DNA from: Nitrospirota bacterium
GTDB lineage: Bacteria; Nitrospirota; UBA9217
NCBI GenBank assembly: GCA_020052615.1
Contig: JAGVOT010000090.1
Location: 1-62,740 of the forward strand
Direction of reading: 5' to 3'
DNA length: 62,740 nt
The translations under genes were made by a program, and so were the position numbers. The notes under the pieces were generated by a model. It worked only from the letters and a program-made list of their open reading frames with translations. It was not told the DNA's origin and did no database searches. Shown one piece after another: positions 37,111 to 62,740 of the stretch; within the stretch, counting starts at the first letter, position 1, and each line of letters starts with the position of its first letter.

Positions 37111-37428
37111 ATGTCCAGAACGGCACGCAGGTTGCAATTCCTTAACACTGTGAAAGGCGACCTCTGTCTACCGAACAAGGCGCAGATAGCGCACGAGATC
37201 CTGGCGTATCTCTCGGACCATCCCGATGCCGAGGATACATTGGAAGGTATTGTCCAATGGTGGCTGCTGGAGAGAAAGATCAAATATCAGCGAGACCTGG
37301 TGAAAGAAGCGATCAGCGAATTGATCAAGAACCAACTGATCGTTGTGAACAAAAGAGCGCGAGATACGATCGTATACCGGTTGAACCGTGACAACAACAG
37401 TGATGGAATGAAATTCTCGCCAAGATAG
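37111..37428 (+). CDS. Small winged-helix-like protein at the head of the CIS cluster
   Basis: A 105-residue protein. QIAHEILAYLSDHPDAEDTLEGIVQWWLLERKI and LVKEAISELIKNQLIVV read as a winged-helix fold without obvious enzymatic residues. Proteins of this type often accompany CIS loci, but their role is unknown; a regulatory or assembly function is possible. The ribosome site is weak. It is the first gene of the same-strand run that leads into DUF4255 and the sheath genes. Confidence 0.65.
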   Translation: MSRTARRLQFLNTVKGDLCLPNKAQIAHEILAYLSDHPDAEDTLEGIVQWWLLERKIKYQRDLVKEAISELIKNQLIVVNKRARDTIVYRLNRDNNSDGMKFSPR

Positions 37429-37517
37429 GAAGACAGGCTGTTTAACGCTCTCCCGTCAACTGACAAGGTGCGGCGTTCAAGGGCCGGAAGGACCTGACGA
37501 AGGGCGGGCACGCGGAT

Positions 37518-38096
37518 ATGGCGACCTACAATGCAATTGCAGTTACGGGACAGACGATCCTCGGCCTTCTGGCATCCGAGTGCCCGCCGGAGCATTCCGG
37601 GGCCCAGTTCGAGCTGTATCAACCGAACAATTTCCTCACACCCATGGAGGAAGGCATCTCCTTATATCTTTATCGGGTGACGGTCAACACCACACGGAGA
37701 AACCTTCCGATGCGCACCGAGTCCAATGGAAAGCGTTTCCGTCCGGCACTGCCGGTTGACCTTTATTATATGCTGACGCCATGGGCAAAAACAGCCGCTA
37801 AGCAGCAGCGCCTCCTTGGCTGGGCCATGCGGGTGCTGGAGGATATGCCTATTTTGCCGGTGAACCTGCTTAACCGGTACGGGGAGCCCGAAACGTTCCG
37901 GGCCAATGAATCGGTGGAACTCGTCTGTGAACCGATCTCTGTGCAGGACATGATCAATATCTGGGACGTGTTCAAGCCGCATCAGCAGCTTTCGGTAACC
38001 TACGTAGCACGGCTGATCATGCTCGATTCCGATGTGGAGCATGCTGAACGCCTGGTACAAGCTCGCGGAGTGGAAGCGGGGAACCTATCGCAATGA
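37518..38096 (+). CDS. DUF4255 protein, CIS cap/tube-terminator (Pvc16-like)
   Basis: A 192-residue protein with the DUF4255 pattern: a start ATYNAIAVTGQTILGLL, then GISLYLYRVTVNTTRRN, LPVDLYYMLTPWA and QQRLLGWAMRVLEDMP. In characterised extracellular contractile injection systems the homologue (Pvc16) caps the tube and sheath. It overlaps the next gene by four bases (ATGA). This supports a CIS assignment rather than an ordinary prophage, because DUF4255 is a CIS marker. Confidence 0.85.
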   Translation: MATYNAIAVTGQTILGLLASECPPEHSGAQFELYQPNNFLTPMEEGISLYLYRVTVNTTRRNLPMRTESNGKRFRPALPVDLYYMLTPWAKTAAKQQRLLGWAMRVLEDMPILPVNLLNRYGEPETFRANESVELVCEPISVQDMINIWDVFKPHQQLSVTYVARLIMLDSDVEHAERLVQARGVEAGNLSQ

Positions 38097-39073
38097 CGTA
38101 CGACACGGCACAAAGCAATGGTCCTGCCGTCAAAGGTGTTACGGACCGTGTCCTTCACACATCCCTGCTCGGCGTGCGCTTTTGGGACCCCGTTCTTCGA
38201 AGGACGATCTCCGATGGTCTCAAAGTTTCGGCCTATCCTGCGATGAATCCCCGACTGCGCTCGGAGGCAGTTCCCAATCCATCCGGCGTGTATGGATTTC
38301 ATAATCTGCCGGGACTGCGTGACTTCGCGCTGAGGGAGATCAAGCGGCCCGAGCAGCAATGGAAAGATGTGGACCCGCGGACACCGCCGCTTCACGGTAA
38401 ACGCTATATTGTAGAAGTTACGGATAACCGGGACTGGCGCCTTTTGCCATTCTTCCGGGACTGGCGGTTTTTGCCGTTCTTGCTGAACGTCACCGTGCCT
38501 GTCCAGGAGGGGATTTGGCCCTGGAGCTGCGCTCTATCAGGATCCTCTCCAGACACGGGCAGCTCCTTTGTCCCGCTCTTTTCATCGCCGACCCGAAGCA
38601 TTCCAGCCGGCATGGCGGCCATTCGCGCAGAATTGCGGGACCCGAACGCAAAACAACCAGCGGCATGGGCTCTTCTCGAGGCGCGCTACCAGGGAGTGCC
38701 CCTGGCGCGGGGGCTTGCGGACGCAAAGGGGCGGATCGTGCTGATCTTTCCCTACCCTGAACCCGCCCGTCTCGAGTTCAGCCCTCCGGTCGGGTCTCCT
38801 CCCCGGGAGAGAAGTATTCCTCTCAGAATGCAGCAGTGGCGGATAGACCTTCAGGCCTTTTACACGCCGGACCCGAATCCGCCCGCAATCCCGGATTTGG
38901 AGATCATTGCATGCACTCAGCCGCCGGCGAAATTATGGGAAGAGGAGACATTAAATACGCCCCTCACCGGCACGGCCATAACATTCGGAGACGAAAAGAT
39001 CATACGCACGAAAAAAGCCGGCGGCGAAACGCTGCCGGAATTGTATATAACCTCGGCGGTATCGCCGCCGTGA
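38093..39073 (+). CDS. CIS-associated protein of unknown function
   Basis: A 326-residue protein with no family I can name. The N-terminal part (about 1-120) has beta-strand-like segments such as YGFHNLPGLRDF; the middle (160-230) includes a region that resembles carboxypeptidase-regulatory or prealbumin-like folds (ALLEARYQGVPLARGLADAKGRIVLIFPYP). It carries a tandem repeat RDWRLLPFF/RDWRFLPFL near residue 115-130. It is encoded between the cap and sheath genes, overlapping the cap gene, so a structural role in the particle is likely. Confidence 0.6.
   Translation: MTYDTAQSNGPAVKGVTDRVLHTSLLGVRFWDPVLRRTISDGLKVSAYPAMNPRLRSEAVPNPSGVYGFHNLPGLRDFALREIKRPEQQWKDVDPRTPPLHGKRYIVEVTDNRDWRLLPFFRDWRFLPFLLNVTVPVQEGIWPWSCALSGSSPDTGSSFVPLFSSPTRSIPAGMAAIRAELRDPNAKQPAAWALLEARYQGVPLARGLADAKGRIVLIFPYPEPARLEFSPPVGSPPRERSIPLRMQQWRIDLQAFYTPDPNPPAIPDLEIIACTQPPAKLWEEETLNTPLTGTAITFGDEKIIRTKKAGGETLPELYITSAVSPP
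38429..38482 (+). repeat. 27-bp tandem duplication within the CIS unknown gene
   Basis: Two adjacent 27-base units, both starting CGGGACTGGCG and matching at most positions, encode RDWRLLPFF and RDWRFLPFL. They are in frame, so the protein is lengthened by nine residues. Confidence 0.75.
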
Positions 39074-39089: not shown

Positions 39090-41072
39090 ATGCCAGAATA
39101 TTTAGCGCCGGGGGTATTTGTTGAAGAAGTGTCGTTTCGCTCCAAGTCGATAGAGGGGGTGAGCACCACGACGACCGGATTCGTCGGGCCGACGCGGTAT
39201 GGGCCGGTAGATCTCGAGCCGGACATTATCACGAGTCTGGGAGAATTCGAGAGGGTTTATGGAGACAGACAACAACTGAACTTTGATGATGCCGGCGAGA
39301 TGCATAATTACATGTGGCATGCGGTCAGGGCTTTCTTTGAGGAAGGCGGCAAAAGGTTATATATCTCGCGAGCGTTCAGACCGATCGGCAAAGATAAAGA
39401 CGTCGATGGGGCGAAAATCAACGGAGACGGCTGTGCAGATGTCTGGCTGCCCCAAAAGCCTGCAGCTGATACGGTGAAACCAAAAGCGATAAGAATACGA
39501 GCTCGCTTCCCGGGCATCTTGGGAAACATGCGGGTGCGTCTCACCTTGAAAGTGGGTCAGAATATTCTCGGGAGCGCTGATAAAGTACTGGTGGATGGCG
39601 ATGTGGTTTGGATAAACGATTGGACGTGCTCTTCTCCCTATGTTTCTCCACCCGTCGAGGAATATGGTGCCTTTTATCTGGCTGAATCCTATGTAGACAC
39701 AAATGATCCCAAAAAAGAGACCAAGTGGAGGTTTAACAACCGCTATGACGGAAGATTGAGCCCTCCTCAAATGGTGGAGCTTAAAAATTTGAAAGCCGAT
39801 CCGAACACGAAGTGCAGCGATAAGGTATGCATAGTTACCGCAAGTGTATTTATTATGCCTATCGCCGGCAGTGACCTCCAACCAACCGTTTACGAAGGGA
39901 TCCCTCTTCATCCCGGCCACAAACGCGCAGGCGAGCCCGATTCATTATTTGACAGGTTTGCAGCAAAACCGGGCAGTCTGTCACTGGAACGTCGATTGCC
40001 GATCGTGATTGAACTCGGTAAAGACACGGATGGCAATAGCGGTATCGCCAGCGGCATAGATGTATTGGAAGCTCTTTGCGCTGACATAAATGTGCGTAAT
40101 GCATTAACCAACATGGAATTAAGCGATGCAGCTCGTTCTATTAATGTAGTGCTTAAAGGAGGAAATGACGGGCAAAGACCTACTGCAGACGAATATGAAG
40201 GCAAAGTAGACGAAAAAGACAGAAAAACCGGCTTGAAGCTCTTTGAGGACATAGAAGATATTTCGATAGTGGCAGCTCCGGGTTCGACGTTTGGATATGA
40301 GAATGGTTATCGTTCTGAGGGAGCAACGATCATCAATAATCTGATCTCTCACGCCGAAAAAATGAAGTACCGGATAGCGGTATTGGATTCCGGAGAGGAA
40401 CAGACCATTGCCGGCGTCAGAGCGATGAGAGCGAGATACGATTCAAAGCACGCGGCTCTTTACTACCCATGGGTGCGAGTGCTCGATCCCGTGACAAGGG
40501 CAGAAATCAGTCTTCCACCCAGCGGATTCGTAGCAGGTATCTATGCACGCAACGATACCAACCGCGGCGTTATCAAGGCCCCGGCAAACGAGGTCGTCAA
40601 CCTCGCACTCGGTTTCGAGACCATGTTGAACAAGAGCCAGCAGGAAGTGCTGAACCCCGAGGGCATCAATTGCTTCCGGTTTTTCGAGGGACGGGGCAAC
40701 CGGCTGTGGGGAGCGCGCACTATCAGCTCCGATCCGGAATGGAAATACGTGAACGTGCGGCGCTATTTCGCCTATCTCGAACGGTCCATCGACAAGGGAA
40801 CGCAGTGGGCTGTGTTCGAGCCGAACGGCGAGGCCCTCTGGGCCAACGTGCGAAGGACCGTCGAGGACTTTTTGTTCAACGAGTGGGTGTCCGGCGCCCT
40901 GCTGGGCGAAAAACCCGATAAGGCGTTCTTCGTCAAGTGCGACCGCTCCACCATGACCCAGAACGACCTAGACAATGGCAGGCTGATCTGCCAGATCGGC
41001 GTGGCTGCGCTCAAGCCGGCGGAGTTTGTGGTATTCCGCATCGGCCAGTGGACCGCGGACCGCAAAAGCTAG
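39090..41072 (+). CDS. CIS sheath protein 1
   Basis: A 660-residue contractile sheath. The N-terminus YLAPGVFVEEVSFRSKSIEGVSTTTTGFVG and the C-terminal block EGINCFRFFEGRGNRLWGARTISSDPEWKYVNVRRYFAYLERS are classic for the phage-tail sheath family. The middle (about residues 90-430) is a long variable insertion. GGAGGAGATC precedes the ATG. The 3' third (from about 40550) is more GC-rich and has codon use like its neighbours; the larger 5' part is AT-richer. The sheath shortens to drive the tube through a target membrane. Confidence 0.93.
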   Translation: MPEYLAPGVFVEEVSFRSKSIEGVSTTTTGFVGPTRYGPVDLEPDIITSLGEFERVYGDRQQLNFDDAGEMHNYMWHAVRAFFEEGGKRLYISRAFRPIGKDKDVDGAKINGDGCADVWLPQKPAADTVKPKAIRIRARFPGILGNMRVRLTLKVGQNILGSADKVLVDGDVVWINDWTCSSPYVSPPVEEYGAFYLAESYVDTNDPKKETKWRFNNRYDGRLSPPQMVELKNLKADPNTKCSDKVCIVTASVFIMPIAGSDLQPTVYEGIPLHPGHKRAGEPDSLFDRFAAKPGSLSLERRLPIVIELGKDTDGNSGIASGIDVLEALCADINVRNALTNMELSDAARSINVVLKGGNDGQRPTADEYEGKVDEKDRKTGLKLFEDIEDISIVAAPGSTFGYENGYRSEGATIINNLISHAEKMKYRIAVLDSGEEQTIAGVRAMRARYDSKHAALYYPWVRVLDPVTRAEISLPPSGFVAGIYARNDTNRGVIKAPANEVVNLALGFETMLNKSQQEVLNPEGINCFRFFEGRGNRLWGARTISSDPEWKYVNVRRYFAYLERSIDKGTQWAVFEPNGEALWANVRRTVEDFLFNEWVSGALLGEKPDKAFFVKCDRSTMTQNDLDNGRLICQIGVAALKPAEFVVFRIGQWTADRKS

Positions 41073-41095: not shown

Positions 41096-41548
41096 ATGGC
41101 TGAACTAAGAGAACGGCCCTACGTTCAATTCAATTTTCTGGTGAACCTGGGCGACGGCGTGACCGAGGGCCCGGAGGCGGGCTTCCAGGAGTGCAGCGGC
41201 ATCGGCATGGAGGTTACGGTCGCCGAGTACCGGAACGGCAACGAAAAAGAGAACAGCGTCCGCAAGATCACCGGCATGAACAAATCGACGGACGTAACGC
41301 TGAAGCGAGGAGTCATCGGCTCGCTCGGCCTCTACAAATGGCTCGACCAGATCCGGAACGGCGATCAAAACGCCTACCGCAACGTGGTGATCCAGCTTTT
41401 GAGCGAAGACCGCGGCAAAATAGCCCAGGAGTGGAAGCTGCTGCGGGCGCGGATCATCAAGCACACCAGCGGCCCGATGAACGCCAAAGGGACCGACGTT
41501 GCCATGGAAGAGCTGGTCCTTGCCTACGAACGCCTGGAGATGGCATAA
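41096..41548 (+). CDS. CIS inner tube protein 1
   Basis: A 150-residue tube protein of the phage gp19/Hcp-like fold. It starts MAELRERPYVQFNFLVNL and has the conserved EAGFQECSGIGMEVTVAEYRNG and TLKRGVIGSLGLYKWLDQIR segments. The start ATG at 41096 lies behind AAGGAGG. It stacks into the tube that the sheath surrounds. It sits immediately between the two sheath genes. Confidence 0.93.
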   Translation: MAELRERPYVQFNFLVNLGDGVTEGPEAGFQECSGIGMEVTVAEYRNGNEKENSVRKITGMNKSTDVTLKRGVIGSLGLYKWLDQIRNGDQNAYRNVVIQLLSEDRGKIAQEWKLLRARIIKHTSGPMNAKGTDVAMEELVLAYERLEMA

Positions 41549-41550
41549 GC

Positions 41551-44529
41551 ATGATGACGCAGGTCGCGCAGAGATTGCCCGGCATCGGCTTTGAGGCGCA
41601 GCCCTCGACGCAGAGGGAGCACTTGCCACGCATGGACGTGGCTGTTTTCGTGGGATTTGCCGCGTCAGGGCCGTTGCACACGCCGGTCGCGGTGGAGGAT
41701 GCAGCCCAGTTCGAGGCGGTCTTCGGCATTGACGCCCCCCTTGCCTGGGACGAGCAGCACAGTCGGCCCGTGTACGCTAATCTCGCCCCCGCGGTGAGGG
41801 CCTTCTTCCGGAACGGCGGCCGGCGCTGCTGGGTCATCCGCGTGGCAAGAGCGGCGCGTGACGATGAAGAGCGGACCGGGGAAAAGGCCGCCCAGTATAA
41901 CTATTTTCCGATTCCCGGCCTTGCGCGGGTGGATTTTGACGAGTCCGGCAGGAAGCTTGTCGCTGTCACGCCTGCTTTTGCCCGGGCGCGGTCGGAAGGC
42001 AGCTGGTCCGATTCGCTGCGCACCGGGACCGTCCTCGCTTCGCTCGCCGTTGAGATTGTCTCAGTCTCGCCGGACGGACGCACAGTCGATGTCAAGGTAA
42101 GATCGAAAGCCGGGATCGCGCCGGGCGATCTTTTGCGAGTGTCCTTTGAAGATGGTCATATTCTATTGCTTGCAGTCGATACAGTTCAACAACCACCGGC
42201 TTCTCCGCCTCTCTCTCCTCCGCTTGACATCAATGTCGTGAGGGCCTCGGGTCGTTCTATCTGGCTTGGGCCTGTTGCTGAAGCAAGTCCACCGCCTTCC
42301 GTATGCGTTCATGTATTCGGTCAGGGGCCGAACTCTGTATGCAGCCCGCCGGTCTCGCCCCCATCCGGACAGGGCGGCCGATCCGGCTTCGAGGAAGAAC
42401 AATGGTGCGAGTTATCCGGCAATATCATCAAGTCCGATCCCTCCACTAAAACAATGTCGATCGGCCTGACTACTCTGCCGGCGGAGCTGCCGGCGCCCGG
42501 TTCCCTGATACGGGTCGAATGGAATGAACGGCAGGTATGGATGTCGGTACGGAGCGCCGGGTACGAAACCGGAGAAGGATCCCCAGCGAGCAAGGGGGCC
42601 TGCCTGCAGGGCGAGGCTGTCGAGATTGCTTATGATGCACCTGTCTGTTCGCAAAAACCAGTTTCCGGCGAGATACTCAGCTTCGATCTTCACGCTCAAC
42701 GAGGTGTTGACTATTTCGTTTCCCTCCGCGGCCTCGGGTTTACTCCGCGGCATCCGCGATACTGGGGAAAACTGCCTACCGATCGGGAACTTTACGGCGG
42801 GCCGGGCGCCGCAGGGGAGAGAGAACGCACCGCAGCAGCCTTCGTCGAGGAGCGTATGGATTTTTGGAGCTTGCACGGAGGCGGCCGTTTTCCCCTGGCA
42901 AAGAGCGAAAAGGAACCGCAAAGGGAAAACTCATTCTGCTTCCCGATCGGCATGCCCTTCGTTCTCAATCGCGACTGGTTCGTCGGCGCCGTAAAGCTCG
43001 CCGCAACGCCGCTGGAGAGGGACGGCCTCGCCTCGTTCACGGCAGACCTCTTTCTCGATCACGGGCTGGTCGGATACGGCCTGCACACCCTGATGTCCCA
43101 GGCGGATTTTATCCGCTACCAGGCCCCGACGATCCGAAAACTACAGGGCATCCATGCGGCGATAGAGATCGACGAGGCGACGATCATCAGTGTTCCCGAC
43201 GCGGTTCATCGGGGATGGAAGAAGAAGAAGCCTGATGAGCAGCCTAAGGACAAGGAACCGGAATCAAAGCCGGAATATCGGCCGGAATGGTGGCATTTCG
43301 AACAATGCGGCCTGTCTCCTGCAGAGCAAAAGAAGCGCTCCGAAGACAAAGACCACCGAAGAAGAGACCCCTTACAGGGGAACTTCCTCAACTGCTCCAT
43401 TCGGGTAATAAAACCTCCAACAGGTCTCGATGCCGGAAAACCGGACCTGTCGGGTTCCTTCGTCCTTACGTGGTCATTCGGACAGCAAGCCCGGTTCGCG
43501 GTGCAGGAAGCGACAAGTCCTGACTGGGCCGGAGCTGCGGTCATGTATGAGGGCGGGGACAACCGGATTGCAATTTACGGACGGCAACCCGGGACCTATT
43601 ACTATCGGGTCCGGGCTGAGGAAAATGGCGATACAAGCGACTGGTCGGCCGGCATAGCGGTGCAGGTCGGTGAGCCGCTGCCGTGGACGCAGAACAAGAC
43701 GGAGCAGTATTCAACCGAGGCGCTTGAGACGCTTCTTGCTGTGCAGAGGGCGCTTCTGCGCACGTGCGCGGCGCGGGGAGATCTGTTTGCCGTGCTTTCC
43801 CTCCCGGAGCACTATCGGGAAAACGACTGCGCAGTCCATAAAAAAACATTGAAAGAAGCGGTACCCGGAGGACTGGAGCCGGCAGCCCTCAGCTACGGCG
43901 CGCTCTATCATCCCTGGGTGACCACTCGGGACGAGAGTCCGGTCAATCCGCTGCGGACCGTTCCGCCGGAAGGCCCCCTGTGCGGCATCTTCGCGGAACG
44001 GGCGATGAGACGCGGCGCATGGGTGGCTCCGGCCAATGTCCCGGTGAACAATGCGCTCATGCTTGACCCGCCCGTCCTTCCCGAGCGCAGGCTTGAACTG
44101 CAGGAGGCGCGGGTCAATCTTCTCAGGCAGGAAGCTCGGGGCTTTCTGGTCCTGAGCGCCGACACCATGAGCGACGACCCTGAGCTTCGCCCGATCAATG
44201 TACGCCGTCTGCTGACATTGCTCAGGAAACTGGCGCTGCGGATGGGACAGCGGTACGTGTTCGAGCCGAATAACGCTTCATTTCATCGGCTTGTCCAGCG
44301 GAGCTTCGAGGCTATGCTGGACGAACTGTTCATGCGAGGCGCGTTCGCCGGACCGACGCCGGCGACATCCTATCAGGTCGTAACCGGGAACGGGCTCAAT
44401 ACGCCGCAAAGCCTGGAGGCGGGGCGGTTCATTGTTGAGCTGAAGGTCGCGCCGTCGAAACCCCTTCACTTTCTGACGATACGCCTGGTGCAGACGGGCG
44501 ACGGGGCGGCTGTTTCGGAGGGAAGATAA
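41551..44529 (+). CDS. CIS sheath protein 2 with a large insertion containing a fibronectin-III-like stretch
   Basis: A 992-residue sheath-family protein, longer than usual. The N-terminus (MDVAVFVGFAASGPLHTPV... YANLAPAVRAFFRNGGRRCWVIRVAR) and C-terminus (INVRRLLTLLRKLALRMGQRYVFEPN) are sheath-like. The central ~550 residues are an insertion. One part, around residues 640-710, has the FN3-like pattern SFVLTWSFGQQARFAVQEA...GTYYYRVRAEENGDTSDWS. The true start is ATG 41551 (or 41554), because the longer frame upstream overlaps the tube gene. A second sheath could form the tail-end collar. The stop is three bases before the tube-2 gene. Confidence 0.88.
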   Translation: MMTQVAQRLPGIGFEAQPSTQREHLPRMDVAVFVGFAASGPLHTPVAVEDAAQFEAVFGIDAPLAWDEQHSRPVYANLAPAVRAFFRNGGRRCWVIRVARAARDDEERTGEKAAQYNYFPIPGLARVDFDESGRKLVAVTPAFARARSEGSWSDSLRTGTVLASLAVEIVSVSPDGRTVDVKVRSKAGIAPGDLLRVSFEDGHILLLAVDTVQQPPASPPLSPPLDINVVRASGRSIWLGPVAEASPPPSVCVHVFGQGPNSVCSPPVSPPSGQGGRSGFEEEQWCELSGNIIKSDPSTKTMSIGLTTLPAELPAPGSLIRVEWNERQVWMSVRSAGYETGEGSPASKGACLQGEAVEIAYDAPVCSQKPVSGEILSFDLHAQRGVDYFVSLRGLGFTPRHPRYWGKLPTDRELYGGPGAAGERERTAAAFVEERMDFWSLHGGGRFPLAKSEKEPQRENSFCFPIGMPFVLNRDWFVGAVKLAATPLERDGLASFTADLFLDHGLVGYGLHTLMSQADFIRYQAPTIRKLQGIHAAIEIDEATIISVPDAVHRGWKKKKPDEQPKDKEPESKPEYRPEWWHFEQCGLSPAEQKKRSEDKDHRRRDPLQGNFLNCSIRVIKPPTGLDAGKPDLSGSFVLTWSFGQQARFAVQEATSPDWAGAAVMYEGGDNRIAIYGRQPGTYYYRVRAEENGDTSDWSAGIAVQVGEPLPWTQNKTEQYSTEALETLLAVQRALLRTCAARGDLFAVLSLPEHYRENDCAVHKKTLKEAVPGGLEPAALSYGALYHPWVTTRDESPVNPLRTVPPEGPLCGIFAERAMRRGAWVAPANVPVNNALMLDPPVLPERRLELQEARVNLLRQEARGFLVLSADTMSDDPELRPINVRRLLTLLRKLALRMGQRYVFEPNNASFHRLVQRSFEAMLDELFMRGAFAGPTPATSYQVVTGNGLNTPQSLEAGRFIVELKVAPSKPLHFLTIRLVQTGDGAAVSEGR

Positions 44530-44532: not shown

Positions 44533-45003
44533 ATGGCGAATCCTGCTGCAGAGACGGTGAAATATCCTTTTACCGCCTTTAACTTCTCCGTGGAGATAAA
44601 CATCCTCGGCGTCGAAGGGAACATCTGCTCCGCCGCCTTTTCGGAGTGCGACGGTCTCGAGATGACCATGGAGCTCAAGACGATCCGGGACGGCGGCAAC
44701 AACGGCCGCCAGGTACGCCTGACGGGGCCCGTTGCGTACGGTCAGTTGACGCTGAAGCGGGGCATGACCGAAAATTACGACCTTTGGACGTGGTTTCAGA
44801 CCGTGGTGAGCAACGCGGGCTTCCGCGCAGACGCCGATGTGGTCCTGTTTGCCGAGGACGGCGTCACGGAGCGTGTGCGGTTCACACTTTCCCGGTGTGT
44901 GCCGGTGAAGCTTAAAATGCCGGCGCTGAACGGCAAGGACGGCATGGTTGCTGTCGAAGAGCTGCAATTGGCATATGAAGCGATATCGCGCAAGCCCGCG
45001 TGA
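44533..45003 (+). CDS. CIS inner tube protein 2
   Basis: A 156-residue tube paralogue. It shares with tube 1 the pattern FNFSVEI...AFSECDGLEMTMELKTIRDG...LTLKRGMTENYDLWTWFQ. In CIS particles a second tube protein often forms the first ring on the spike. It lies three bases after sheath 2. Confidence is high for the family; its position in the particle is inference. Confidence 0.9.
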   Translation: MANPAAETVKYPFTAFNFSVEINILGVEGNICSAAFSECDGLEMTMELKTIRDGGNNGRQVRLTGPVAYGQLTLKRGMTENYDLWTWFQTVVSNAGFRADADVVLFAEDGVTERVRFTLSRCVPVKLKMPALNGKDGMVAVEELQLAYEAISRKPA

Positions 45004-45760: not shown

Positions 45761-45925
45761 ATGGGAGTCGTGATAAACGAGTTCGAAGTGGTATCGGAGA
45801 ACCAGCCGGCCGAGGGTCCGGCCGGCGCTGCGGCCGCGCCTCCTCCCGAGGCGGCGACGCCGCATGATCTTGAGAGGATCATTCAGCGGCGGGCCGAGCG
45901 CGCTGAACGGGTATGGGCCCACTGA
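45761..45925 (+). CDS. Short CIS protein (54 residues) between adaptor and hub
   Basis: A small gene of 54 residues, MGVVINEFEVV..., with a Pro/Ala-rich middle (AEGPAGAAAAPPPEA) and a charged C-terminal helix (LERIIQRRAERAERVWAH). GGGAGGACAGCC lies before the ATG and the hub gene starts seven bases after the stop. Small proteins in this position occur in many CIS loci (Pvc6-like) and probably belong to the baseplate. It is too short for most gene callers. Confidence 0.7.
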   Translation: MGVVINEFEVVSENQPAEGPAGAAAAPPPEAATPHDLERIIQRRAERAERVWAH

Positions 45926-55368: not shown

Positions 55369-56373
55369 ATGAGCACTTTCACTACAGAAGCACTGCAGCA
55401 GACCAAGAAACCCGATCCGACAAAGCACGTGAAGTATACCCAGGGCATGGTGCTGGGCGTCGATGAGTTCGTCCAGGAGTTCGCCTACCTGAGCGGCCGC
55501 GACCAGTGGATGGTCCGCGACCTTGTGGGCTACGGGACCGTGAGCGGGCTGAGCGTGTCCGCGGACACGGACCCGAACAACCCGAAGCCCCGGGTCCTGG
55601 TCACTGCCGGAACGGCCGTGAGCCCGAGGGGCCAGATGATCCGCGTGTCCCAGAACCAATGCGCCTACCTGAACGATTGGCTTGCCATGGAAGAACATCG
55701 CGCGGAAGTCATGAGGCGGCTGGGTTCTCCCGCCGCCGGATCGCTGCCGCTCTACGTGGTCTTGTCCTACCGCAGCTGCCCCACTGATGAGGTGCCCATT
55801 CCCGGCGAGCCGTGCCGGAGCGAAGAAGAGCTTGCCGCGGCGTCGCGGCTCAAGGACGACTTCGTGCTCGATCTCTGCTTCGAACCGCCTGACCAGTGCG
55901 AGGAAGACGCGGTCCGCGCGTTCATCGATTGGCTGTCCTCGAATCTTCAGATCGGAAGCGCCCCTTCGATGAATATCGACGATTTCAAGAAAACCATCCA
56001 CAACGCCGCGTATTCCGCGACCTCGCCGCCCTGTTCGACACCAGGATTCATGCACCTGTCGCCGCCCGGGCTCCTGGTCGTTAATACCGACGATGCGAAC
56101 AAATATCTGCGCGCCGCCTTCCTCATCTGGGTGACGAAGCTCCGTCCGCTGTGGAAGAACGACTTTATCGACACGGAACAATGCGCTGATATGGCAACCG
56201 CATGCGCAGAGAAAAAGGGAGCGGAAGGGGTTCTGCTTGCCGAGCTCGAGGTTCCTCTTGCTGACGGGAAGGTCGGCGGCGCCATCAACGTTATTGAGGA
56301 CCGGCGGCCCTATCTGCTTCATCTTCGCATGCAGCAGGAGTGGTTGGCGTGCTGCGGGAAAAGACAGGAATGA
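55369..56373 (+). CDS. CIS-associated unknown protein (paralogue of the 56775 gene product)
   Basis: A 334-residue protein. It contains GYGTVSGLSVSAD followed by VLVTAGTAVSPRGQMI, a pattern also found in the product at 56775 (GEGVAFGLEVSV, LKVTAGLALNRKGQTL). The rest is rich in Cys and includes PCxxEEEL-like acidic blocks. The family is unnamed to me. GGGAGAACCGTT precedes the ATG. It lies directly after the baseplate gene and may be a baseplate accessory or attachment protein. Confidence 0.6.
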   Translation: MSTFTTEALQQTKKPDPTKHVKYTQGMVLGVDEFVQEFAYLSGRDQWMVRDLVGYGTVSGLSVSADTDPNNPKPRVLVTAGTAVSPRGQMIRVSQNQCAYLNDWLAMEEHRAEVMRRLGSPAAGSLPLYVVLSYRSCPTDEVPIPGEPCRSEEELAAASRLKDDFVLDLCFEPPDQCEEDAVRAFIDWLSSNLQIGSAPSMNIDDFKKTIHNAAYSATSPPCSTPGFMHLSPPGLLVVNTDDANKYLRAAFLIWVTKLRPLWKNDFIDTEQCADMATACAEKKGAEGVLLAELEVPLADGKVGGAINVIEDRRPYLLHLRMQQEWLACCGKRQE

Positions 56374-56385: not shown

Positions 56386-56742
56386 GTGAGCTCGGGCAGC
56401 TCGCCGCCGATACCGTTGAGATACGGCGTTGTAGCCGCCGGCAAGGCGCGCAGCCGTGACCTGACCGGCGAGAACAACATCAACCGGCTGCGGGCAGTGG
56501 GCGTCAAAAAGGGAGAGATCGCCTTCACCTTTGACGATTACCGCATGCCGGACGCTTCCACCCGCTATGTGATCAAAGCCGAGGCCCTGGCAGGACCAAA
56601 GGTGAAATTGCCCATCCCGACGGTGCGGCTGCTCGAGTTCCGGCCGGAAGGGTTCGCTCTCCGGGTGACGCGGGGAACAACGCTGCTTACGATAACGGAG
56701 ATCCGGCAGATCGAATTCATGATAGAAGTGAACAAGTATTGA
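56386..56742 (+). CDS. Small CIS-associated unknown protein
   Basis: A 118-residue protein starting at GTG 56386; a stop codon lies five codons upstream in frame, so the start cannot be earlier. It is beta-rich by appearance (IPLRYGVVAAGK, GEIAFTFDDYRM, IPTVRLLEFRPEGFALRVTRG). No family is recognised. It is squeezed between two related unknown CIS genes. Confidence 0.55.
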   Translation: MSSGSSPPIPLRYGVVAAGKARSRDLTGENNINRLRAVGVKKGEIAFTFDDYRMPDASTRYVIKAEALAGPKVKLPIPTVRLLEFRPEGFALRVTRGTTLLTITEIRQIEFMIEVNKY

Positions 56743-56774: not shown

Positions 56775-58187
56775 ATGAAAACGATCGATCTTCTTGCTCC
56801 CCTGTTGGACAGAGGAATCAGGAACACCAACTTCTTTAACGGCCGCTTGCTGAGCGCCGAGGACCTGAGCGCGGAGCAGAACGCCAACCGTCAGCACCAT
56901 GAGCTCCTCGGCAGGGCCGGGGGCGAGGGCGTCGCTTTCGGCCTCGAGGTGAGCGTCACCACGGACCCCTCGTCTCCTCCCGATACCACCAGGCCGTTGC
57001 TCAAGGTGACGGCCGGCCTTGCCCTGAACCGCAAGGGCCAGACGCTCAGCCTGCCTGATGACGCAACCATCCGGCTGGTCCCGGCCGAGGAGGAGCAGGC
57101 TGCGGTCGCGGGCCTGTTCGCCGCCTGCGAGCCTCCGACGACCGAGGTGTACCAGACCGGCACGGGCGTTTATATCCTTGCCATAGCCCCGTCGTCGGGC
57201 TACGAGGGAAAAGCGCCCATGAGCGGACTGGGCGAAGAGCCCGGCGCTGGCCGAGCCTGCGGCAGGCGGTACGCCGTGGAGGGCGTCCAGTTCCGGCTGG
57301 TGGAGATGAACATCAATACCCTCGCCGGCATAAGCGACGCCACCCGATCGCAGGTCCTGGAGCTCATGAACAAGAGTAAAGACAAGAACGACGCGGCAAG
57401 CCGCGAGAAACTGCGCAATATCCTCGCCCACCTCTGCTTCGGCACCGAGGAGCTGGCGACCTTTGCGGCAGATCCGTTCAGGAAAACAGAAGAGGGAAGA
57501 CCAGCGTATCTCGCCTACGACGCGCTGGACGCCCTGCGGGCCAAGGACAAGCTCACGGACTGCGACGTGCCGCTGGCGATGATCTATTGGACCAGGGACG
57601 GTGTTCAGTTCGTGGACATGTGGTCGGTCAGACGGCGGGTCTCGGCGCAAAACAAGAGCCTGGCCTGGCCCCTTGCCGTTGACGACCGCAGGCAGGCCGA
57701 AGGTGAGGCCATGTTCCTGCAGTTCCAGGACCAGATGGATGAGATGTTCAAGGCGAACCCGTCCGAACTGGAGAAGATGAAGGCGACGAGTTATTTTCGT
57801 TATCTGCCACCGGCCGGAATTTTGCCCTTGGCCGCAAAAAAAGGATCGCAGGGCATCAAGCTTGTGAATTTTGCATCAGGACTGACCCTGCGCGATAAAG
57901 CCATTCTGGAGATCCTTGCTTTCCCGGACCGCATATTCATGGAAGGCGCAAAGCTGGGGCCGCTTCTGCGCGAAGCTGCGAAATATCCGCCCATAGATCT
58001 GAAAAGCCGCGAACTTATCTGGACCTATCTCGTACGGGAAAACATTCAGGCGATCGACGAGCAGCCTCCCAAACTGTTCCAACCCTATCTGGTCTTTACC
58101 AACGGGCAGATGCCCTTTGCCGGGGACGCTCGATTCGATCTCAGTTACTGGGCTTACAGCAATTATTCATCGACACTGGCCAGTTAG
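56775..58187 (+). CDS. CIS-associated unknown protein, second paralogue
   Basis: A 470-residue protein from ATG 56775 (MKTIDLLAPLLDRGIRNTNFFNGRLLSAEDL); a TTG at 56739 would add 12 residues. RNTNFFNGRLLSAEDL and the GEGVAFGLEVSV/LKVTAGLALNRKGQTL block occur at the N-terminus, matching the protein at 55369. The remaining 300 residues are unlike anything I recognise. It is probably a structural or attachment component of the particle. Confidence 0.6.
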   Translation: MKTIDLLAPLLDRGIRNTNFFNGRLLSAEDLSAEQNANRQHHELLGRAGGEGVAFGLEVSVTTDPSSPPDTTRPLLKVTAGLALNRKGQTLSLPDDATIRLVPAEEEQAAVAGLFAACEPPTTEVYQTGTGVYILAIAPSSGYEGKAPMSGLGEEPGAGRACGRRYAVEGVQFRLVEMNINTLAGISDATRSQVLELMNKSKDKNDAASREKLRNILAHLCFGTEELATFAADPFRKTEEGRPAYLAYDALDALRAKDKLTDCDVPLAMIYWTRDGVQFVDMWSVRRRVSAQNKSLAWPLAVDDRRQAEGEAMFLQFQDQMDEMFKANPSELEKMKATSYFRYLPPAGILPLAAKKGSQGIKLVNFASGLTLRDKAILEILAFPDRIFMEGAKLGPLLREAAKYPPIDLKSRELIWTYLVRENIQAIDEQPPKLFQPYLVFTNGQMPFAGDARFDLSYWAYSNYSSTLAS

Positions 58188-58214: not shown

Positions 58215-60131
58215 ATGTCACTGAAATTTGACCGCGTGAAAGAAGGAAATTTAATTACGGCCAAGCTCATGAATGATATTCTGACGGCTTTAGAGAACCT
58301 GGAGGCGAAGATAGGGACCGGCACCAGCTCGCCGGGCTTTCTGAGCATAACTAGCGTGTCCCCTCAACCGGTAAGCCCCGGACAAACACTTGCTGTCGAG
58401 GGTGAGAACTTCGGCACGCAGAATGAGAACATAATCCTTATCGGTGGAACCCGGGTAGATGCCGACAAGATCGACACCATCAACAGCAGCAGTTTAACTT
58501 TCGAAGTGCCGGAAATTGAAGAGGGATGGGTCTGGCTCACGATCTGTAATCCCACGGTACTGGGTATGGGACATCAGAAAATCGAGATCAAGAAGCCAAC
58601 GGTTGAAACAAAAGGATCGATCGAAGCCACGATAACCATTAAATTGAAAAGCGGCAAAACCAAAAAAGCCGGAAAACAACCCTCTCCGGACGGCATCGTG
58701 ATGCCAGGTCAAGGCCCAGAGCTGCAGGACATAGCCTGTGACTACATCGAAAAGTATCTCAAGGTAACCGCCAAGCAAGCTCCACTCAAATACGTGAAGT
58801 GCAAACTGGATATTGATAAACAAGGACGCAATATAGCCGTTGCTATGTTTGTTCGCAACAACCTGGCACCCGGCAGCTATCGTGTTTCCGCTCAAATGGA
58901 TGGCTTTAATACCTCGTTTAAAGATGTCGAGGTAGTTACCGGCCGGAAAACTGACACATCACTTACCATGACGCCGAAAACGCAAGGCGGCAAGCCCCCG
59001 AAGAATGGAAAACCTGACATCGGTGAAAAGCTTGACCACGGCTGGTACGCTGCTGCTGATCCGCTTTATAGCCATACTCGCTGGCCCTGGCCGCCGCCTG
59101 AAGAGCGGACCGGGTTTGACCCGGTCACTGATCCCGGGCCGGAGGAAGTGGAAGAAGTAGAGGACTGGCTGGAAAGTGTTGCCGACCGAGTCCAGGAGGA
59201 GAATCCCGGAGCTCCCGTGGATCGTAACATCAAAATCTTTATGGACCGGTCCTATGCGCCCGGAACAGTGACCGATCAGGCTTATGCCTACGTGGTGTTT
59301 GGAGACAATGGTGCTTATGTGCCGGTGATGCTCGTACCCAAGGATTATGCAGACGCTGCATCAGTTTCTTTGATAAAGTCCGCACTTCCCGGCGTTGACA
59401 TCGATGTTGCGAATAAACTGGCTGAACACGGAATCAATAACACGGCACAACTGGCCTCCGCCTGGAGCGGGCTCGTGCAAAGCGCGCTGGAAACATCGCC
59501 GGAAGCCGCGGAGATGACGATTAAAACGGCCCAAGCCAAATCCAAGGAGCTACAGGGCAGCGTTGCCTCGCTGAGCGGAGTGAATACAACAATGGAAAAG
59601 ACCCTCGTAACAGCAGGACTCGACAGCTTTGTCGTGCTTGCTAACTGCGAAGCCGCGGATCTCAGCAGCAAAATGAAAATAGACCTAGCTTTTGCCGAGC
59701 GGCTCGTTGTTGAGGCTCAGGCGAGGGTTTCGGAAAGTATGTGGTCGCTTACTCGGCTCGGTTTGAATGAGGGTCAAATCAGTGCGCTAAAAACAAAAGG
59801 CATTACGACATTACAGTCCTTTAAGAATGCTGCCGCTCCCGACGTTGCAGGTGCATTAGGCATAGGCGCAGAACAGGTGACAAATATAGCCAAGGGGATC
59901 GACACGCTGGAAGCGACCAAAACCACTTATTCTCGAACAGTCCAAAAGTCGGCGCCGGTGACGAACGTATTTGGAATCACCCGCGAGGTAGGCGCGTCTC
60001 TTGCACGCATGGGTATCGCTACCGTAGGCGCATTGGCCGAAGCAGATAATGCAAAAATAGCAGCCGCATTCCGAGGAAGTGTTCCTCTGGCAGAGGCGGC
60101 TAAAAAGGCGGCTAATAAGTTGCTCGAGTAA
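58215..60131 (+). CDS. IPT/TIG-domain protein with C-terminal helix-hairpin-helix repeats
   Basis: A 638-residue protein. Residues 40-125 form an IPT/TIG Ig-like domain (LSITSVSPQPVSPGQTLAVEGENFG...NIILIGGTRVDAD). A second beta domain (residues 150-250, ending LAPGSYRVSAQMDGFNTSFKDVEV) is Pro-linked to a WPWPPP spacer. The last 260 residues contain several helix-hairpin-helix-like units (LAEHGINNTAQLASA, LTRLGLNEGQISALKTKGITTLQSF, LARMGIATVGALAEAD). AAGGAGGGGCATGAC precedes the ATG. It is more AT-rich than its neighbours. Likely a surface or tip component, or cargo. Confidence 0.65.
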   Translation: MSLKFDRVKEGNLITAKLMNDILTALENLEAKIGTGTSSPGFLSITSVSPQPVSPGQTLAVEGENFGTQNENIILIGGTRVDADKIDTINSSSLTFEVPEIEEGWVWLTICNPTVLGMGHQKIEIKKPTVETKGSIEATITIKLKSGKTKKAGKQPSPDGIVMPGQGPELQDIACDYIEKYLKVTAKQAPLKYVKCKLDIDKQGRNIAVAMFVRNNLAPGSYRVSAQMDGFNTSFKDVEVVTGRKTDTSLTMTPKTQGGKPPKNGKPDIGEKLDHGWYAAADPLYSHTRWPWPPPEERTGFDPVTDPGPEEVEEVEDWLESVADRVQEENPGAPVDRNIKIFMDRSYAPGTVTDQAYAYVVFGDNGAYVPVMLVPKDYADAASVSLIKSALPGVDIDVANKLAEHGINNTAQLASAWSGLVQSALETSPEAAEMTIKTAQAKSKELQGSVASLSGVNTTMEKTLVTAGLDSFVVLANCEAADLSSKMKIDLAFAERLVVEAQARVSESMWSLTRLGLNEGQISALKTKGITTLQSFKNAAAPDVAGALGIGAEQVTNIAKGIDTLEATKTTYSRTVQKSAPVTNVFGITREVGASLARMGIATVGALAEADNAKIAAAFRGSVPLAEAAKKAANKLLE

Positions 60132-60173: not shown

Positions 60174-62183
60174 ATGGGTACTGTTCAGTTCGCTCATATC
60201 AACAATTTGCGCATTCGCGCGCGCGGAGGTGGTATTGATCCCCTCTCCGCTCGTGCGAGAATGGAAAGCCTGCTGAGCAATGTCACACTTCATCCACCGG
60301 GCCTTTCTTCCTCCGCAATCGTCTGCATCCGCAGGCTTTGCGACCCGAAGCCCGGCGCGCTCTGTTTGTGGCGGACCGACATGCGGCCTCTGCGGGACTG
60401 GGAAAAGGCGGTAGCGGAATCCATCGAGATGCTCACACAACGGGCAGCGCGGCCGGCTCTCAGCCTGGTGCCTGCTGACGCCGAGGCGGTTCTGTTCCTG
60501 GACCGGTCCGAGCTGCTCGCCTGCCTTGCCCGCGACTGGTCCGAAGGCATGACCACGCAATGGTGGTGGAAGAGCCTGTTCAGGAACACGGTGACCGCGG
60601 GCATGCTCATGCACCAGTGGCTCGAGACCCCTGAATACAATCCCGGTGCTTTGCGCATTCTCGCTGAGCAGGGGAAGGTCGCGCCCTTCGCCTCAAAGCT
60701 GTCCGGAAACGAGGTTGTTGCTCTCGTCCGCGGAATGACGCAAAAGTTCGGACTTGCACATCTCCAGGCAGCACTCGACGGGCAGTTCATCAACAAAGAA
60801 ACAAACCGTGCAGAATCAATTAAAGACAAGGAAAAGGAAGTTCGGAAAACATCATCCTGGACAGAAGGTACTATCGACCAAGTCGAAGAGGGCGGCATAA
60901 GGGATTTATACGTTCCGAATTTAGCGAGACGGTCGGCAAACAGCGGACCGATTCCTCCTCCATGGCGCAGGTTCGTGCCGGAAAGCACTGCTCCCTCGCT
61001 GGGACCTGAACAACAGGCACTGATCGGGATCGGGCTAATGTTAACCAGGGCTCCGGCGGAGATCAGGAAAAGCAGTTTCGCAGAGGCGATCGATCGTTGG
61101 AAAACAGCACTTACCGGACCTGGCTCGCTTGATCCCAAGCAGGAACAAGCCCGGACAAGAGAAACGAACAGCAGGTCCGAGCCATCCGCAAGCCGTCATT
61201 CCGGGCTTGATCCGGAATCCGGCAACGTTACAGAAAAACCTCTGGATTCCCGCTTTAGCGGGAATGACGAACGTACCAGCTCTCCTGTCGAGAAGCATCA
61301 ATACCGTGAATCACGAAGAGAAGGTCAATTTGACATAGAAGATGCTTCTTCCATTGTTGACACCGGCTTGGGCGGTCGCGACAATCCATCAATGATGCAG
61401 TCCCGTGCTATGGAGGCGGCGCAGTCTGGCCTTCTGAACGAAACCGTGATCGAGACCGATCTGGGCGGGCTATTCTACCTCGTCAATCTCGGCCTATATC
61501 TCGGTCTTTACGGTGACTTCACCACGCCCCTTCAGCCGGGGATCGATCTTAGTATCTGGGATTTCATCACGCTCGCAGGTCGCCGTCTTGTCGGAGAGAC
61601 GGCTTCTGATGATCCCGTCTGGTCGTTGCTTGCGGCGCTCGCAGGCAGGAACGATGGCGCGACTCCGGGAGCCGGCTTCGAGCCGCCTGATGAATGGCGG
61701 CTTCCAATCTCATGGCTTGAGTCCTTTTCGCTTGAGACGGCATGGCGCTGGTCCTCGGACGATGACCGGCTGCGATTGCTGCACGGGGAAGGATTCGTGG
61801 TCCTCGACGTTGCCCGGACGAGTGAAGAGCCGTTGGTCCAGCTTTCCCATGAGATAAAAACATACGGCCAGGCGGTCCCCGAACGGATCGAGCCCCTTGA
61901 TCTCGCTTGTCAGGACCCGACGCATACGCCGCTCGAACAATGGCTGGACCGGCTACTTCCATATATACAGGCGCGGCTTCGCAGAGCCTTCGGCACAACT
62001 GATGACGAGGAAGTACATCGCCTCCTGATCCGGAGCCGCGCAAGGATAAGGGCGACGGAAACGAATCTCGACGTGCACTTTTCTCTCGACGACCTGCCGG
62101 TCGAGATTCGCGTTGCGGGCTTGGACAGAGATCCCGGCTGGGTGCCCGCTGCCGGTCGTTACGTGGCGTTTCATTATGAATGA
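60174..62183 (+). CDS. CIS-associated unknown protein carrying an inserted palindromic repeat
   Basis: A 669-residue protein from ATG 60174 (a TTG at 60165 adds three residues). The first 200 residues include ALSLVPADAEAVLFLDRSELLACLARDW and TQWWWKSLF, and the second half has TNLDVHFSLDDLPVEIRVAGLDRDPGWVPAAGRYVAFHYE at the end. The protein is interrupted by a low-complexity linker (residues 205-390) containing an imported repeat, RHSGLDPESG...PLDSRFSGNDE. A similar N-terminal block is seen in CIS-associated proteins of other bacteria, by my recollection. Function unknown. Confidence 0.6.
   Translation: MGTVQFAHINNLRIRARGGGIDPLSARARMESLLSNVTLHPPGLSSSAIVCIRRLCDPKPGALCLWRTDMRPLRDWEKAVAESIEMLTQRAARPALSLVPADAEAVLFLDRSELLACLARDWSEGMTTQWWWKSLFRNTVTAGMLMHQWLETPEYNPGALRILAEQGKVAPFASKLSGNEVVALVRGMTQKFGLAHLQAALDGQFINKETNRAESIKDKEKEVRKTSSWTEGTIDQVEEGGIRDLYVPNLARRSANSGPIPPPWRRFVPESTAPSLGPEQQALIGIGLMLTRAPAEIRKSSFAEAIDRWKTALTGPGSLDPKQEQARTRETNSRSEPSASRHSGLDPESGNVTEKPLDSRFSGNDERTSSPVEKHQYRESRREGQFDIEDASSIVDTGLGGRDNPSMMQSRAMEAAQSGLLNETVIETDLGGLFYLVNLGLYLGLYGDFTTPLQPGIDLSIWDFITLAGRRLVGETASDDPVWSLLAALAGRNDGATPGAGFEPPDEWRLPISWLESFSLETAWRWSSDDDRLRLLHGEGFVVLDVARTSEEPLVQLSHEIKTYGQAVPERIEPLDLACQDPTHTPLEQWLDRLLPYIQARLRRAFGTTDDEEVHRLLIRSRARIRATETNLDVHFSLDDLPVEIRVAGLDRDPGWVPAAGRYVAFHYE
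61195..61268. repeat. Palindromic repeat element inserted in frame
   Basis: GTCATTCCGGGCTTGATCCG ... GGATTCCCGCTTTAGCGGGA, then ATGAC. The ends are inverted copies (GTCATTCC/GGAATGAC) and two inner hairpins form. The same sequence in half form lies at 22947-22976 between genes. Such elements are normally intergenic. Confidence 0.8.
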
Positions 62184-62331
62184 CCCTCACCGCTGGATGA
62201 TCTACAGCTTGGCGACGAAGAATCGGTTTGAACCGGTAGTTGAGCGGTCGAGAGCGGGAACGCCAATGATCGGCACCGAGAGTTCGACGAAGCAATACGG
62301 CGTTCATTCTGATGGTGACGAGGATAAGTAA
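62176..62331 (+). CDS. Short CIS-cluster protein (51 residues)
   Basis: MNDPHRWMIYSLATKNRFEPVVERSRAGTPMIGTESS..., 51 residues. Its ATG overlaps the end of the upstream gene by eight bases, and its stop shares one base with the ATG of the ATPase-like gene. Translational coupling on both sides suggests it is real. Function unknown. Confidence 0.55.
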   Translation: MNDPHRWMIYSLATKNRFEPVVERSRAGTPMIGTESSTKQYGVHSDGDEDK

Positions 62332-62740
62332 TGATGACGGCAAGGAATCCCTTCTCCGACATCCCTCACGCTCCGGCGGAGCACTTCAAACTGCTGTTCT
62401 ACGCCGCCGTTCTGCACGTGCTCCGGCAGACCGCCCGTGCGCACGAGTCGCTTGAAGACATGCTCAAGCGGTTCCCGTTCCTCGCGGGCTACCACAACGA
62501 GCTGGCCGAGCATGGTCTCGATGGCGCGCCGGTGGACGAAGCGCCGCACTTGTGGAACGGCTGGCTCGGGTCCTGGGAATCGGCCGCACCGGGCCACCTT
62601 CCTCTCCGGGCGCTCAGCGAAGCCGCGGGACTCGATCGCGACGCGCTGACGCTCCTCGTCTGCATCGGGATGATCGAAGAAGAGACGCGCTTCGGGCCGC
62701 TCTTCGAGGCCCTGCAGAACATATCCGGCCAGCGGCGGCC
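62331..62740 (+). CDS. Start of a probable CIS AAA+ ATPase (Pvc15-like), truncated by the window edge
   Basis: 136 residues are visible. The end of the visible part, LRALSEAAGLDRDALTLLVCIGMIEEETRFGPLFEALQNISGQRR, resembles the helical N-terminal region of CIS ATPases (a pattern of small-domain helices before the AAA+ core, with RFGPLFEAL). No Walker A motif is inside the window, so the ATPase call depends on this resemblance and on gene order. The homologue in CIS loci is believed to help loading or assembly. Confidence 0.5.
   Translation, partial: MMTARNPFSDIPHAPAEHFKLLFYAAVLHVLRQTARAHESLEDMLKRFPFLAGYHNELAEHGLDGAPVDEAPHLWNGWLGSWESAAPGHLPLRALSEAAGLDRDALTLLVCIGMIEEETRFGPLFEALQNISGQRR

What the first reader, a model, noticed from the sequence alone, without database searches (positions are those of the whole stretch)
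37111..62740. Long contractile injection system cluster in an anaerobic cytochrome-rich bacterium
DUF4255 cap, two sheaths, two tubes, LysM adaptor, split hub/spike, gp25, J and I baseplate proteins and a probable ATPase lie on one strand with little spacing. There are no capsid, terminase or integrase genes, so this is a CIS rather than a prophage. PAAR, tape measure and fibre are missing so far, and four to six genes (38093, 47721, 55369, 56386, 56775, 60174) are of unknown function. This combination may define a separate CIS lineage.
Basis: partly seen in the sequence, partly recalled or inferred. Interest (0 to 1): 0.72.

Follow-up and report, generated by a model that had tools for sequence, protein, structure and literature searches.

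The report
Contractile injection system with membrane tip
This is a gene cluster for a phage-tail-like molecular syringe in a Nitrospirota bacterium, one of a family spread across more than ten phyla in which the usual tip (PAAR) gene is replaced by a protein with a highly conserved membrane tail, which suggests that these syringes are docked at the cell membrane.

Summary
Window 37518-62740 is a one-strand contractile injection system (CIS) cluster. It is not a prophage: the sheath is closest to CIS sheaths (best phage hits 25-31% identity), and no capsid, terminase or integrase family appeared among the genes scanned.

The contig stops inside the AAA+ ATPase. The rest lies on contig C52 of the same genome: the ATPase core, then a 977-aa cargo with an eCIS core domain (DUF4157), tape-measure-like helices and a DNA/RNA endonuclease domain.

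The cluster belongs to a large, strictly syntenic lineage found in more than ten phyla, monophyletic in sheath (98/94) and baseplate-J (100/100) trees. The lineage has no PAAR gene (none in this whole genome). In its place sits a ~500-750-aa protein (window 47721-49823) ending in a near-invariant transmembrane tail, present in 55 of 56 orthologues. The sister group, haloarchaeal and Streptomyces CIS have PAAR or PAAR-like genes there. In many relatives the operon also encodes an exported protein with exchangeable surface anchors. A sigma-54 activator gene and a -24/-12-like site lie upstream.

Most likely a membrane-docked CIS delivering a nuclease. Docking is inferred, not shown. I found no description of this membrane protein in the papers held.

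The parts
35458..36891 (+). sigma-54 dependent activator (NtrC type), probable local regulator
   Evidence: Sigma54_activat 1.8e-63; homologue upstream of the cap gene in 29 of the 80 relative loci
37121..37136 (+). -24/-12-like site CGGCACGCAGGTTGCA
   Evidence: score 17.7 against a background 99th percentile of 12.3; 22 of 68 relatives' upstream regions exceed that percentile, about 0.7 expected
37111..37428 (+). small protein; codon model prefers a start at 37150
   Evidence: conserved just upstream of the cap gene in 11 relatives
37518..38096 (+). cap / tail terminator (DUF4255, Pvc16_N)
   Evidence: Pfam 8.6e-36
38093..39073 (+). u326, lineage protein; carboxypeptidase-regulatory-like beta domain suspected
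   Evidence: found in 66 relative loci between cap and sheath 1; no database family; a Nostoc CIS has CarboxypepD_reg at the same place
39090..41072 (+). sheath 1
   Evidence: Pfam 1.6e-18; trees
41096..41548 (+). tube 1
   Evidence: 1.4e-89 to tube 1 of G006
41551..44529 (+). sheath 2 with long insertions
   Evidence: Phage_sheath_1C, PHROG tail sheath 1.5e-33, codon model start
44533..45003 (+). tube 2 (gp19)
   Evidence: Pfam 4.4e-34
45061..45738 (+). tube initiator / adaptor (CIS_tube, Afp7-like)
   Evidence: Pfam 5.1e-30
45761..45925 (+). 54-aa protein, candidate Afp6/Cis6-like spike plug
   Evidence: conserved pattern VVINEFEV...ER..R.RAH at the same place in many relatives; function inferred from position
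45932..47005 (+). hub (VgrG N-terminal half)
   Evidence: GPD 4e-6, VgrG_rel 1.8e-25
47005..47727 (+). spike (VgrG C-terminal half)
   Evidence: Phage_base_V 1.4e-23
47721..49823 (+). TM700: protein in the PAAR position with a C-terminal transmembrane tail (residues about 652-695)
   Evidence: AF2 model; no PDB or viral fold match
49820..50218 (+). gp25 baseplate wedge
   Evidence: Pfam 1.9e-23
50228..52501 (+). baseplate J (Afp11-like), single copy
   Evidence: Pfam 9.2e-8; tree
52492..55353 (+). baseplate I / CIS12 family
   Evidence: NF053768 6.5e-35, TIGR02242 1.5e-22
55369..56373 (+). CIS13-like protein a
   Evidence: NF053767 1.7e-7, below cut-off; conserved in relatives
56386..56742 (+). 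u118; homologous to a stretch of the longer c13a of myxobacteria
56775..58187 (+). CIS13-like protein b
   Evidence: NF053767 7e-5, below cut-off; conserved in relatives
58215..60131 (+). TIG-domain protein with N-terminal motif (G.LITA..N.....L..LE), candidate fibre; C-terminal HHH repeats
   Evidence: Pfam TIG 2.7e-10, HHH 3e-7; same N-terminal motif in relatives
60174..62183 (+). u672, lineage protein before the ATPase
   Evidence: conserved in relatives, 27-57% identity; no fold match
62331..62740 (+). N-terminal part of the AAA+ ATPase, cut by the contig end; AAA core and cargo lie on G000:C52 1-3876

Best explanation
The cluster encodes a complete contractile injection system of a PAAR-less, two-sheath, two-tube lineage. 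Shown by sequence: cap, two sheaths, two tubes, adaptor, split hub and spike, gp25, J, I, CIS13-like proteins, a TIG-domain fibre candidate, an ATPase split over two contigs, and an eCIS-core plus endonuclease cargo. Inferred: transcription starts from a sigma-54 promoter under the upstream NtrC-type activator. The particle assembles in the cytoplasm. TM700, encoded between spike and gp25 in the slot used for PAAR elsewhere, inserts its C-terminal helix into the cytoplasmic membrane and holds the baseplate and spike there. On triggering, the sheath contracts and drives tube, spike and the tape-measure-like nuclease cargo outward through the membrane. In many Gram-negative relatives an exported, surface-anchored protein from the same operon would extend the attachment across the envelope; the window's cluster lacks it.
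For: Gene content and order. Continuation on C52 with AAA 1e-22, eCIS_core 6e-30 and Endonuclea_NS_2 1.8e-9, with the same ATPase-cargo-glycosyltransferase order in the sister genome. The TM tail is found in 55 of 56 orthologues (53 directly, two in a neighbouring frame); mean column identity 0.77 in the tail against 0.44 elsewhere. No PAAR (PF05488) or PAAR-like (PF13665) anywhere in the genome. PAAR or PAAR-like genes sit in the same slot in Haloferax, Streptomyces and the sister-group Cereibacter plasmid CIS. TM700-positive clusters form one clade in both trees. Exported proteins with an outer-membrane barrel, a C-terminal TM or a MYXO-CTERM-like anchor occur in relatives' operons. Membrane-anchored CIS precedents: Anabaena Cis13, the haloarchaeal T6SS putative anchor.
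Against: No localisation or structural data. The tail could instead be ejected with the spike and insert into the target membrane. The Symbiobacteriaceae orthologue lacks the tail. The exported protein is missing in the window and in several relatives. S. [quoted passage not shown] The C70-C52 junction is inferred; about 340 ATPase residues fall in the assembly gap.
Confidence: 0.52

Rival explanations
1. Cytoplasmic CIS that acts on the producing cell (Streptomyces-like): free particles contact the cell's own membrane under stress via TM700 and release a nuclease, causing cell death or DNA release.
For: The cargo has the same domain order as S. davawensis Tme (DUF4157, tape-measure-like region, endonuclease), which acts in the producer population. 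No immunity gene was recognised beside the cargo. The sheath's best PDB match is a lineage IId (Streptomyces) sheath.
Against: The lineage separates from IId in the sheath and J trees. TM700 differs in position and layout from CisA, and surface-anchored proteins occur in relatives' operons.
Confidence: 0.22
2. Classical eCIS released by lysis; TM700's hydrophobic tail forms or caps the spike tip and inserts into the target membrane after firing (a tip-borne pore or anchor).
For: TM700 sits exactly in the PAAR slot; some T6SS PAAR effectors carry TM segments (general knowledge); a TIG-domain fibre candidate is present.
Against: A ~500-750-aa protein with large globular and helical parts is big for a tip. 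It is not polymorphic as injected effectors usually are. Surface-anchored operon proteins in relatives make little sense for a released particle.
Confidence: 0.18
3. Degenerate prophage or R-type tailocin.
For: Sheath, tube and baseplate genes are of phage ancestry.
Against: CIS-specific genes (DUF4255, CIS_tube, AAA ATPase, eCIS_core). Phage sheath hits only 25-31% identity. No capsid, terminase or integrase families among the flanking genes scanned. The only IMG/VR contigs with TM700 are themselves CIS clusters.
Confidence: 0.02

Closest known systems
Streptomyces cytoplasmic CIS (dbeCIS IId; PDB 8bky/9gtp), incl. S. davawensis with Tme effector
   Same: Closest solved sheath (7e-108); single J of Cis11 type; DUF4157 / tape-measure-like / endonuclease cargo; AAA ATPase; DUF4255 cap
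   Different: There one sheath, fused VgrG spike, PAAR between spike and gp25, DUF6760 and a separate membrane protein CisA; here two sheaths, split hub and spike, no PAAR, TM700 and u326; separate clade in sheath and J trees
Haloarchaeal CIS / archaeal T6SS (clade IIa; PDB 9ezm)
   Same: Sheath nearly as close (1.7e-106); DUF4255, AAA ATPase, DUF4157 cargo; a membrane protein associated with the T6SS-like mode
   Different: There PAAR present, one sheath, two J proteins; the anchor Hbor_38620 has six TM helices and lies upstream, TM700 has one C-terminal helix and lies in the PAAR slot
Cereibacter sphaeroides plasmid CIS (CP031753)
   Same: Sister group in both trees; two sheaths alternating with two tubes; split hub and spike
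   Different: Has DUF2169 and a PAAR-like (PF13665) gene where this lineage has TM700
Rhodococcus opacus plasmid CIS (NZ_CP095404)
   Same: Basal member of the lineage: u326-position gene, sheath-tube-sheath, split hub and spike, a remote TM700 homologue (2e-23), no PAAR
   Different: Cargo genes sit inside the operon; the TM segment is internal, with a C-terminal extension
Thylakoid-anchored CIS (Anabaena, Ib)
   Same: A CIS attached to an internal membrane by a dedicated TM helix; CIS12/CIS13-family proteins
   Different: There the TM helix is in the fibre-like Cis13 and PAAR (Cis10) is present; here the CIS13-like proteins have no predicted TM helix

Membership tests
Contractile injection system (eCIS-like, dbeCIS superfamily) | Contractile sheath, gp19-type tube, VgrG-type hub/spike, gp25, J baseplate | tested here: met
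Contractile injection system (eCIS-like, dbeCIS superfamily) | DUF4255 cap and AAA+ ATPase in the cluster | tested here: met
   cap; ATPase N-terminal part, AAA core on C52; full ATPase in sister genome
Contractile injection system (eCIS-like, dbeCIS superfamily) | No capsid, terminase or integrase genes | tested here: met
   none among the flanking genes scanned on C70 and C52; not every flanking ORF was scanned
Contractile injection system (eCIS-like, dbeCIS superfamily) | PAAR tip protein | tested here: not met
   no PF05488 or PF13665 in the whole genome, 97.8% complete; some accepted members, e.g. S. coelicolor, also lack PAAR, so this does not exclude membership
Lineage IId (Streptomyces cCIS) | Sheath and J inside the IId clade | tested here: not met
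Clade IIa (haloarchaeal) | Sheath and J group with haloarchaea; PAAR and two J proteins | tested here: not met
Ia/Ib eCIS (AFP, PVC, tCIS) | Sheath groups with Afp3 / All3325 | tested here: not met
dbeCIS IIb or IIc | Sequence grouping with their reference clusters | not tested
   no reference sequences labelled IIb or IIc were available; this lineage may coincide with one of them
Canonical T6SS (types i-iii) | TssJLM membrane complex, TssBC sheath, ClpV | tested here: not met
   single-chain phage-type sheath; no Tss families other than VgrG-type domains among the cluster genes scanned
Membrane-anchored CIS (mode of action) | Particle attached to the membrane in the producing cell | not testable with these tools
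   only a predicted, conserved C-terminal TM helix

The most novel reading that the evidence does not exclude
A widespread PAAR-less CIS lineage, spread by horizontal transfer over more than ten phyla, in which a tail-anchored membrane protein replaced the PAAR tip and turned a phage-tail-type CIS into a membrane-docked, trans-envelope injector. In Gram-negative hosts it would be completed by an exported protein with interchangeable surface anchors. This would be an origin of a T6SS-like mode independent of TssJLM.
Probability: 0.42. Interest if true: 0.82.

Novelty: new variant of a known kind. Interest (0 to 1): 0.62.

Why it matters
How a CIS is told to stay inside, dock to a membrane or leave the cell is an open question, and mode of action cannot be predicted reliably from sequence (PMC12998442). 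Here a whole lineage carries one near-invariant membrane tail exactly where the tip gene should be, and its sister group still has the PAAR-like tip. That gives a simple genetic handle (remove the tail) to test whether membrane docking evolved by replacing the tip. It is present in cultured bacteria (Myxococcus, Solimonas, Caulobacter, Derxia), so it is testable.

Tried and rejected
Prophage or tailocin: rejected. 58215 as an ATPase: rejected. Cargo as a pure tape measure: the protein after the ATPase has helical, tape-measure-like parts but also a nuclease C-terminus and, in this genome, an eCIS core domain, so it is a Tme-type effector and possibly also the length ruler. TM700 fold: no match in PDB or viral structures by sequence or by Foldseek. 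u672: no fold match. u326: only weak transthyretin-like hits. CIS13-like 55369: no meaningful PDB hit. A strict sigma-54 consensus upstream gave 2 of 70; a weighted score gave a clear excess. IMG/VR hits with TM700 were checked as possible phages and are CIS clusters. Defence-system library: nothing but generic AAA hits on the ATPase. Papers describing this protein or lineage: none found among those held.
Full report
OBSERVATION. The window is the whole of contig C70 of its genome (62,740 bases). On the + strand from 37518 to the contig end runs a compact CIS cluster: DUF4255 cap, an unknown 326-aa protein (u326), sheath 1, tube 1, sheath 2, tube 2, CIS_tube adaptor, hub, spike, a 700-aa protein (called TM700 here), gp25, J, I/CIS12, two weak CIS13-like proteins with a 118-aa gene between them, a TIG-domain protein, a 669-aa unknown (u672) and the start of an ATPase. 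Most structural domains hit at 1e-7 or better, and gene order is kept in relatives, so this is far beyond chance. I corrected the start of sheath 2 (41551) and found tube 1 (about 41096-41548) and a missed 54-aa gene (45761-45925) at the place of the small Afp6/Cis6 spike plug; similar ORFs occur there in relatives.

WHERE THE REST IS. A same-family relative, Nitrospirae bacterium GWC2_56_14 (G006/G067), has the same cluster on two contigs. Its ATPase carries an AAA domain. With it as query, the window's genome shows the ATPase N-terminus at the end of C70 and its core at bases 1-639 of contig C52 (69-70% identity; next-best ATPase 34%). About 340 residues fall in the gap; I did not attempt to fill it. 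Next on C52 is a 977-aa protein: eCIS_core (DUF4157, 6e-30), long helical hydrophobic stretches, then a DNA/RNA non-specific endonuclease domain (1.8e-9). This is the domain order of Tme, the S. davawensis CIS effector related to tape measure proteins (PMC11126660). C52 continues with a peptidoglycan-binding-domain protein, glycosyltransferase and methyltransferase genes and a LysM/M15 peptidase; no phage head genes among those scanned.

A WIDESPREAD LINEAGE. A scan of 84,980 species genomes with sheath 1 found 481 relatives. By record title the best 80 come from Desulfuromonadaceae, Nitrospirota, Acidobacteriota, Chloroflexota, Bacteroidota, Kryptoniota, Verrucomicrobiota, Myxococcota, Pseudomonadota, Fibrobacterota, Gemmatimonadota, Calditrichota and Bacillota. 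Nearly all long-enough loci keep the same order cap-u326-sheath-tube-sheath-tube-adaptor-hub-spike-TM700-gp25-J, then I-CIS13a-CIS13b-(TIG)-(exported protein)-u672-ATPase-cargo. In the window's phylum only 4 of 296 genomes have TM700, and two congeners of the window's genome lack it, so horizontal transfer is likely. In trees with Streptomyces, haloarchaeal, cyanobacterial, Deinococcus, Treponema, Cereibacter, AFP and tCIS sequences, TM700-positive clusters form one clade: sheath 98/94 (after leaving out second sheaths, the phage and the lone sheath), J 100/100. Best phage sheath matches are only 25-31% identical.

THE MEMBRANE PROTEIN. TM700 has no Pfam, NCBIfam or PHROG match, no PDB sequence match and no fold match for an AF2 model of mean pLDDT 79. 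Orthologues are 31-53% identical to the window's, but the last ~45 residues (typical: GMICSLSIPIITICALILLMIIVSLLDFIFRWLPYFIMCFPVPGLKGKK) are far more conserved: 0.77 against 0.44. 53 of 56 orthologues show this hydrophobic segment 20-32 residues from the C-terminus; two more have it in a neighbouring frame; the Symbiobacteriaceae one lacks it. It is the only predicted TM segment among the window's CIS proteins. It sits exactly where Haloferax and Streptomyces CIS have PAAR. The sister group (Cereibacter plasmid) has a PAAR-like gene there (7.5e-15). The window's genome has no PAAR and no PAAR-like gene at all. The simplest reading is replacement of the tip gene by a membrane protein on the branch leading to this lineage.

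ENVELOPE PROTEINS IN RELATIVES. Between the TIG gene and u672, twelve of the twenty relatives read encode a ~650-830-aa protein, mostly with a signal-peptide-like N-terminus (judged by eye; no signal-peptide predictor was available). Its C-terminus varies: outer-membrane beta-barrel (Pfam 1.2e-14 in L121; similar ends in L119, L126, L133, L135), a C-terminal TM (L120, L128) or a MYXO-CTERM-like end (L130-L132). Different anchors on related proteins suggest that surface attachment is what is selected. The window's cluster lacks this gene.

REGULATION. An NtrC-type sigma-54 activator gene (35458-36891) precedes the cluster and has homologues upstream of the cap gene in 29 of the 80 loci. A -24/-12-like site at 37121 scores above the 99th background percentile, as do 22 of 68 relatives' upstream regions. 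The weight matrix was my own approximation of the published consensus.

MECHANISM. Shown by sequence: the parts list, PAAR absence, tail conservation, monophyly, cargo domains, upstream activator and site. Inferred: membrane insertion, docking of the baseplate through TM700, firing outward, nuclease as the payload. Rivals are a Streptomyces-like cytoplasmic CIS acting on the producer, and a released particle whose tip inserts in the target. I weight docking at about one half.

NOVELTY. CIS, two-sheath clusters, DUF4157 cargo and membrane-associated CIS are all known. The TM700 lineage, its tail motif and the PAAR replacement are not described in the papers I could search, which exclude most subscription journals. 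The Chen et al. 2019 sequence sets (IIa-IId) were not available, so the clade may coincide with IIb or IIc. I therefore call it a new variant of a known kind.

Noticed in passing
window 61192-61271: An ~80-base repeat, with matches on six other contigs of the genome, lies in frame inside u672 (peptide ...SRHSGLDPESGNVTEKPLDSRFSGNDE...); it contains an imperfect inverted repeat.
   Followed up: partly
L025 (G021:C5) 9256-11202: A lone sheath-1 gene (58% identity to the window's) in another genome of the phylum, with no other matches to the window's CIS proteins in the 40 kb read; a remnant or an orphan sheath.
   Followed up: partly
L136-L145 (IMG/VR contigs): Ten contigs listed as viral in IMG/VR are CIS clusters of this lineage, so they are probably misclassified as viruses.
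   Followed up: yes
window 4865-6295: RtcB-family protein matching best the 'intein-containing RtcB family' NCBIfam model.
   Followed up: no
window 15279-24471: Minus-strand genes for a cytochrome c nitrite reductase-like protein, a NapH/CcoG-like ferredoxin protein and a divergent oxidase subunit I.
   Followed up: no
window 32661-33853: DsbA-like thioredoxin and DsbB on the minus strand just upstream of the regulators.
   Followed up: no
L160 (G000:C52) 4580-5863 and 14450-15151: A peptidoglycan-binding-domain protein shortly after the cargo gene, and a LysM plus M15 peptidase gene further on; possible cell-wall accessory functions.
   Followed up: no
L028 and L029 (G037:C7 35000-74999): A different CIS type in another genome of the phylum: two J proteins, several CIS13-like genes, no TM700.
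   Followed up: partly
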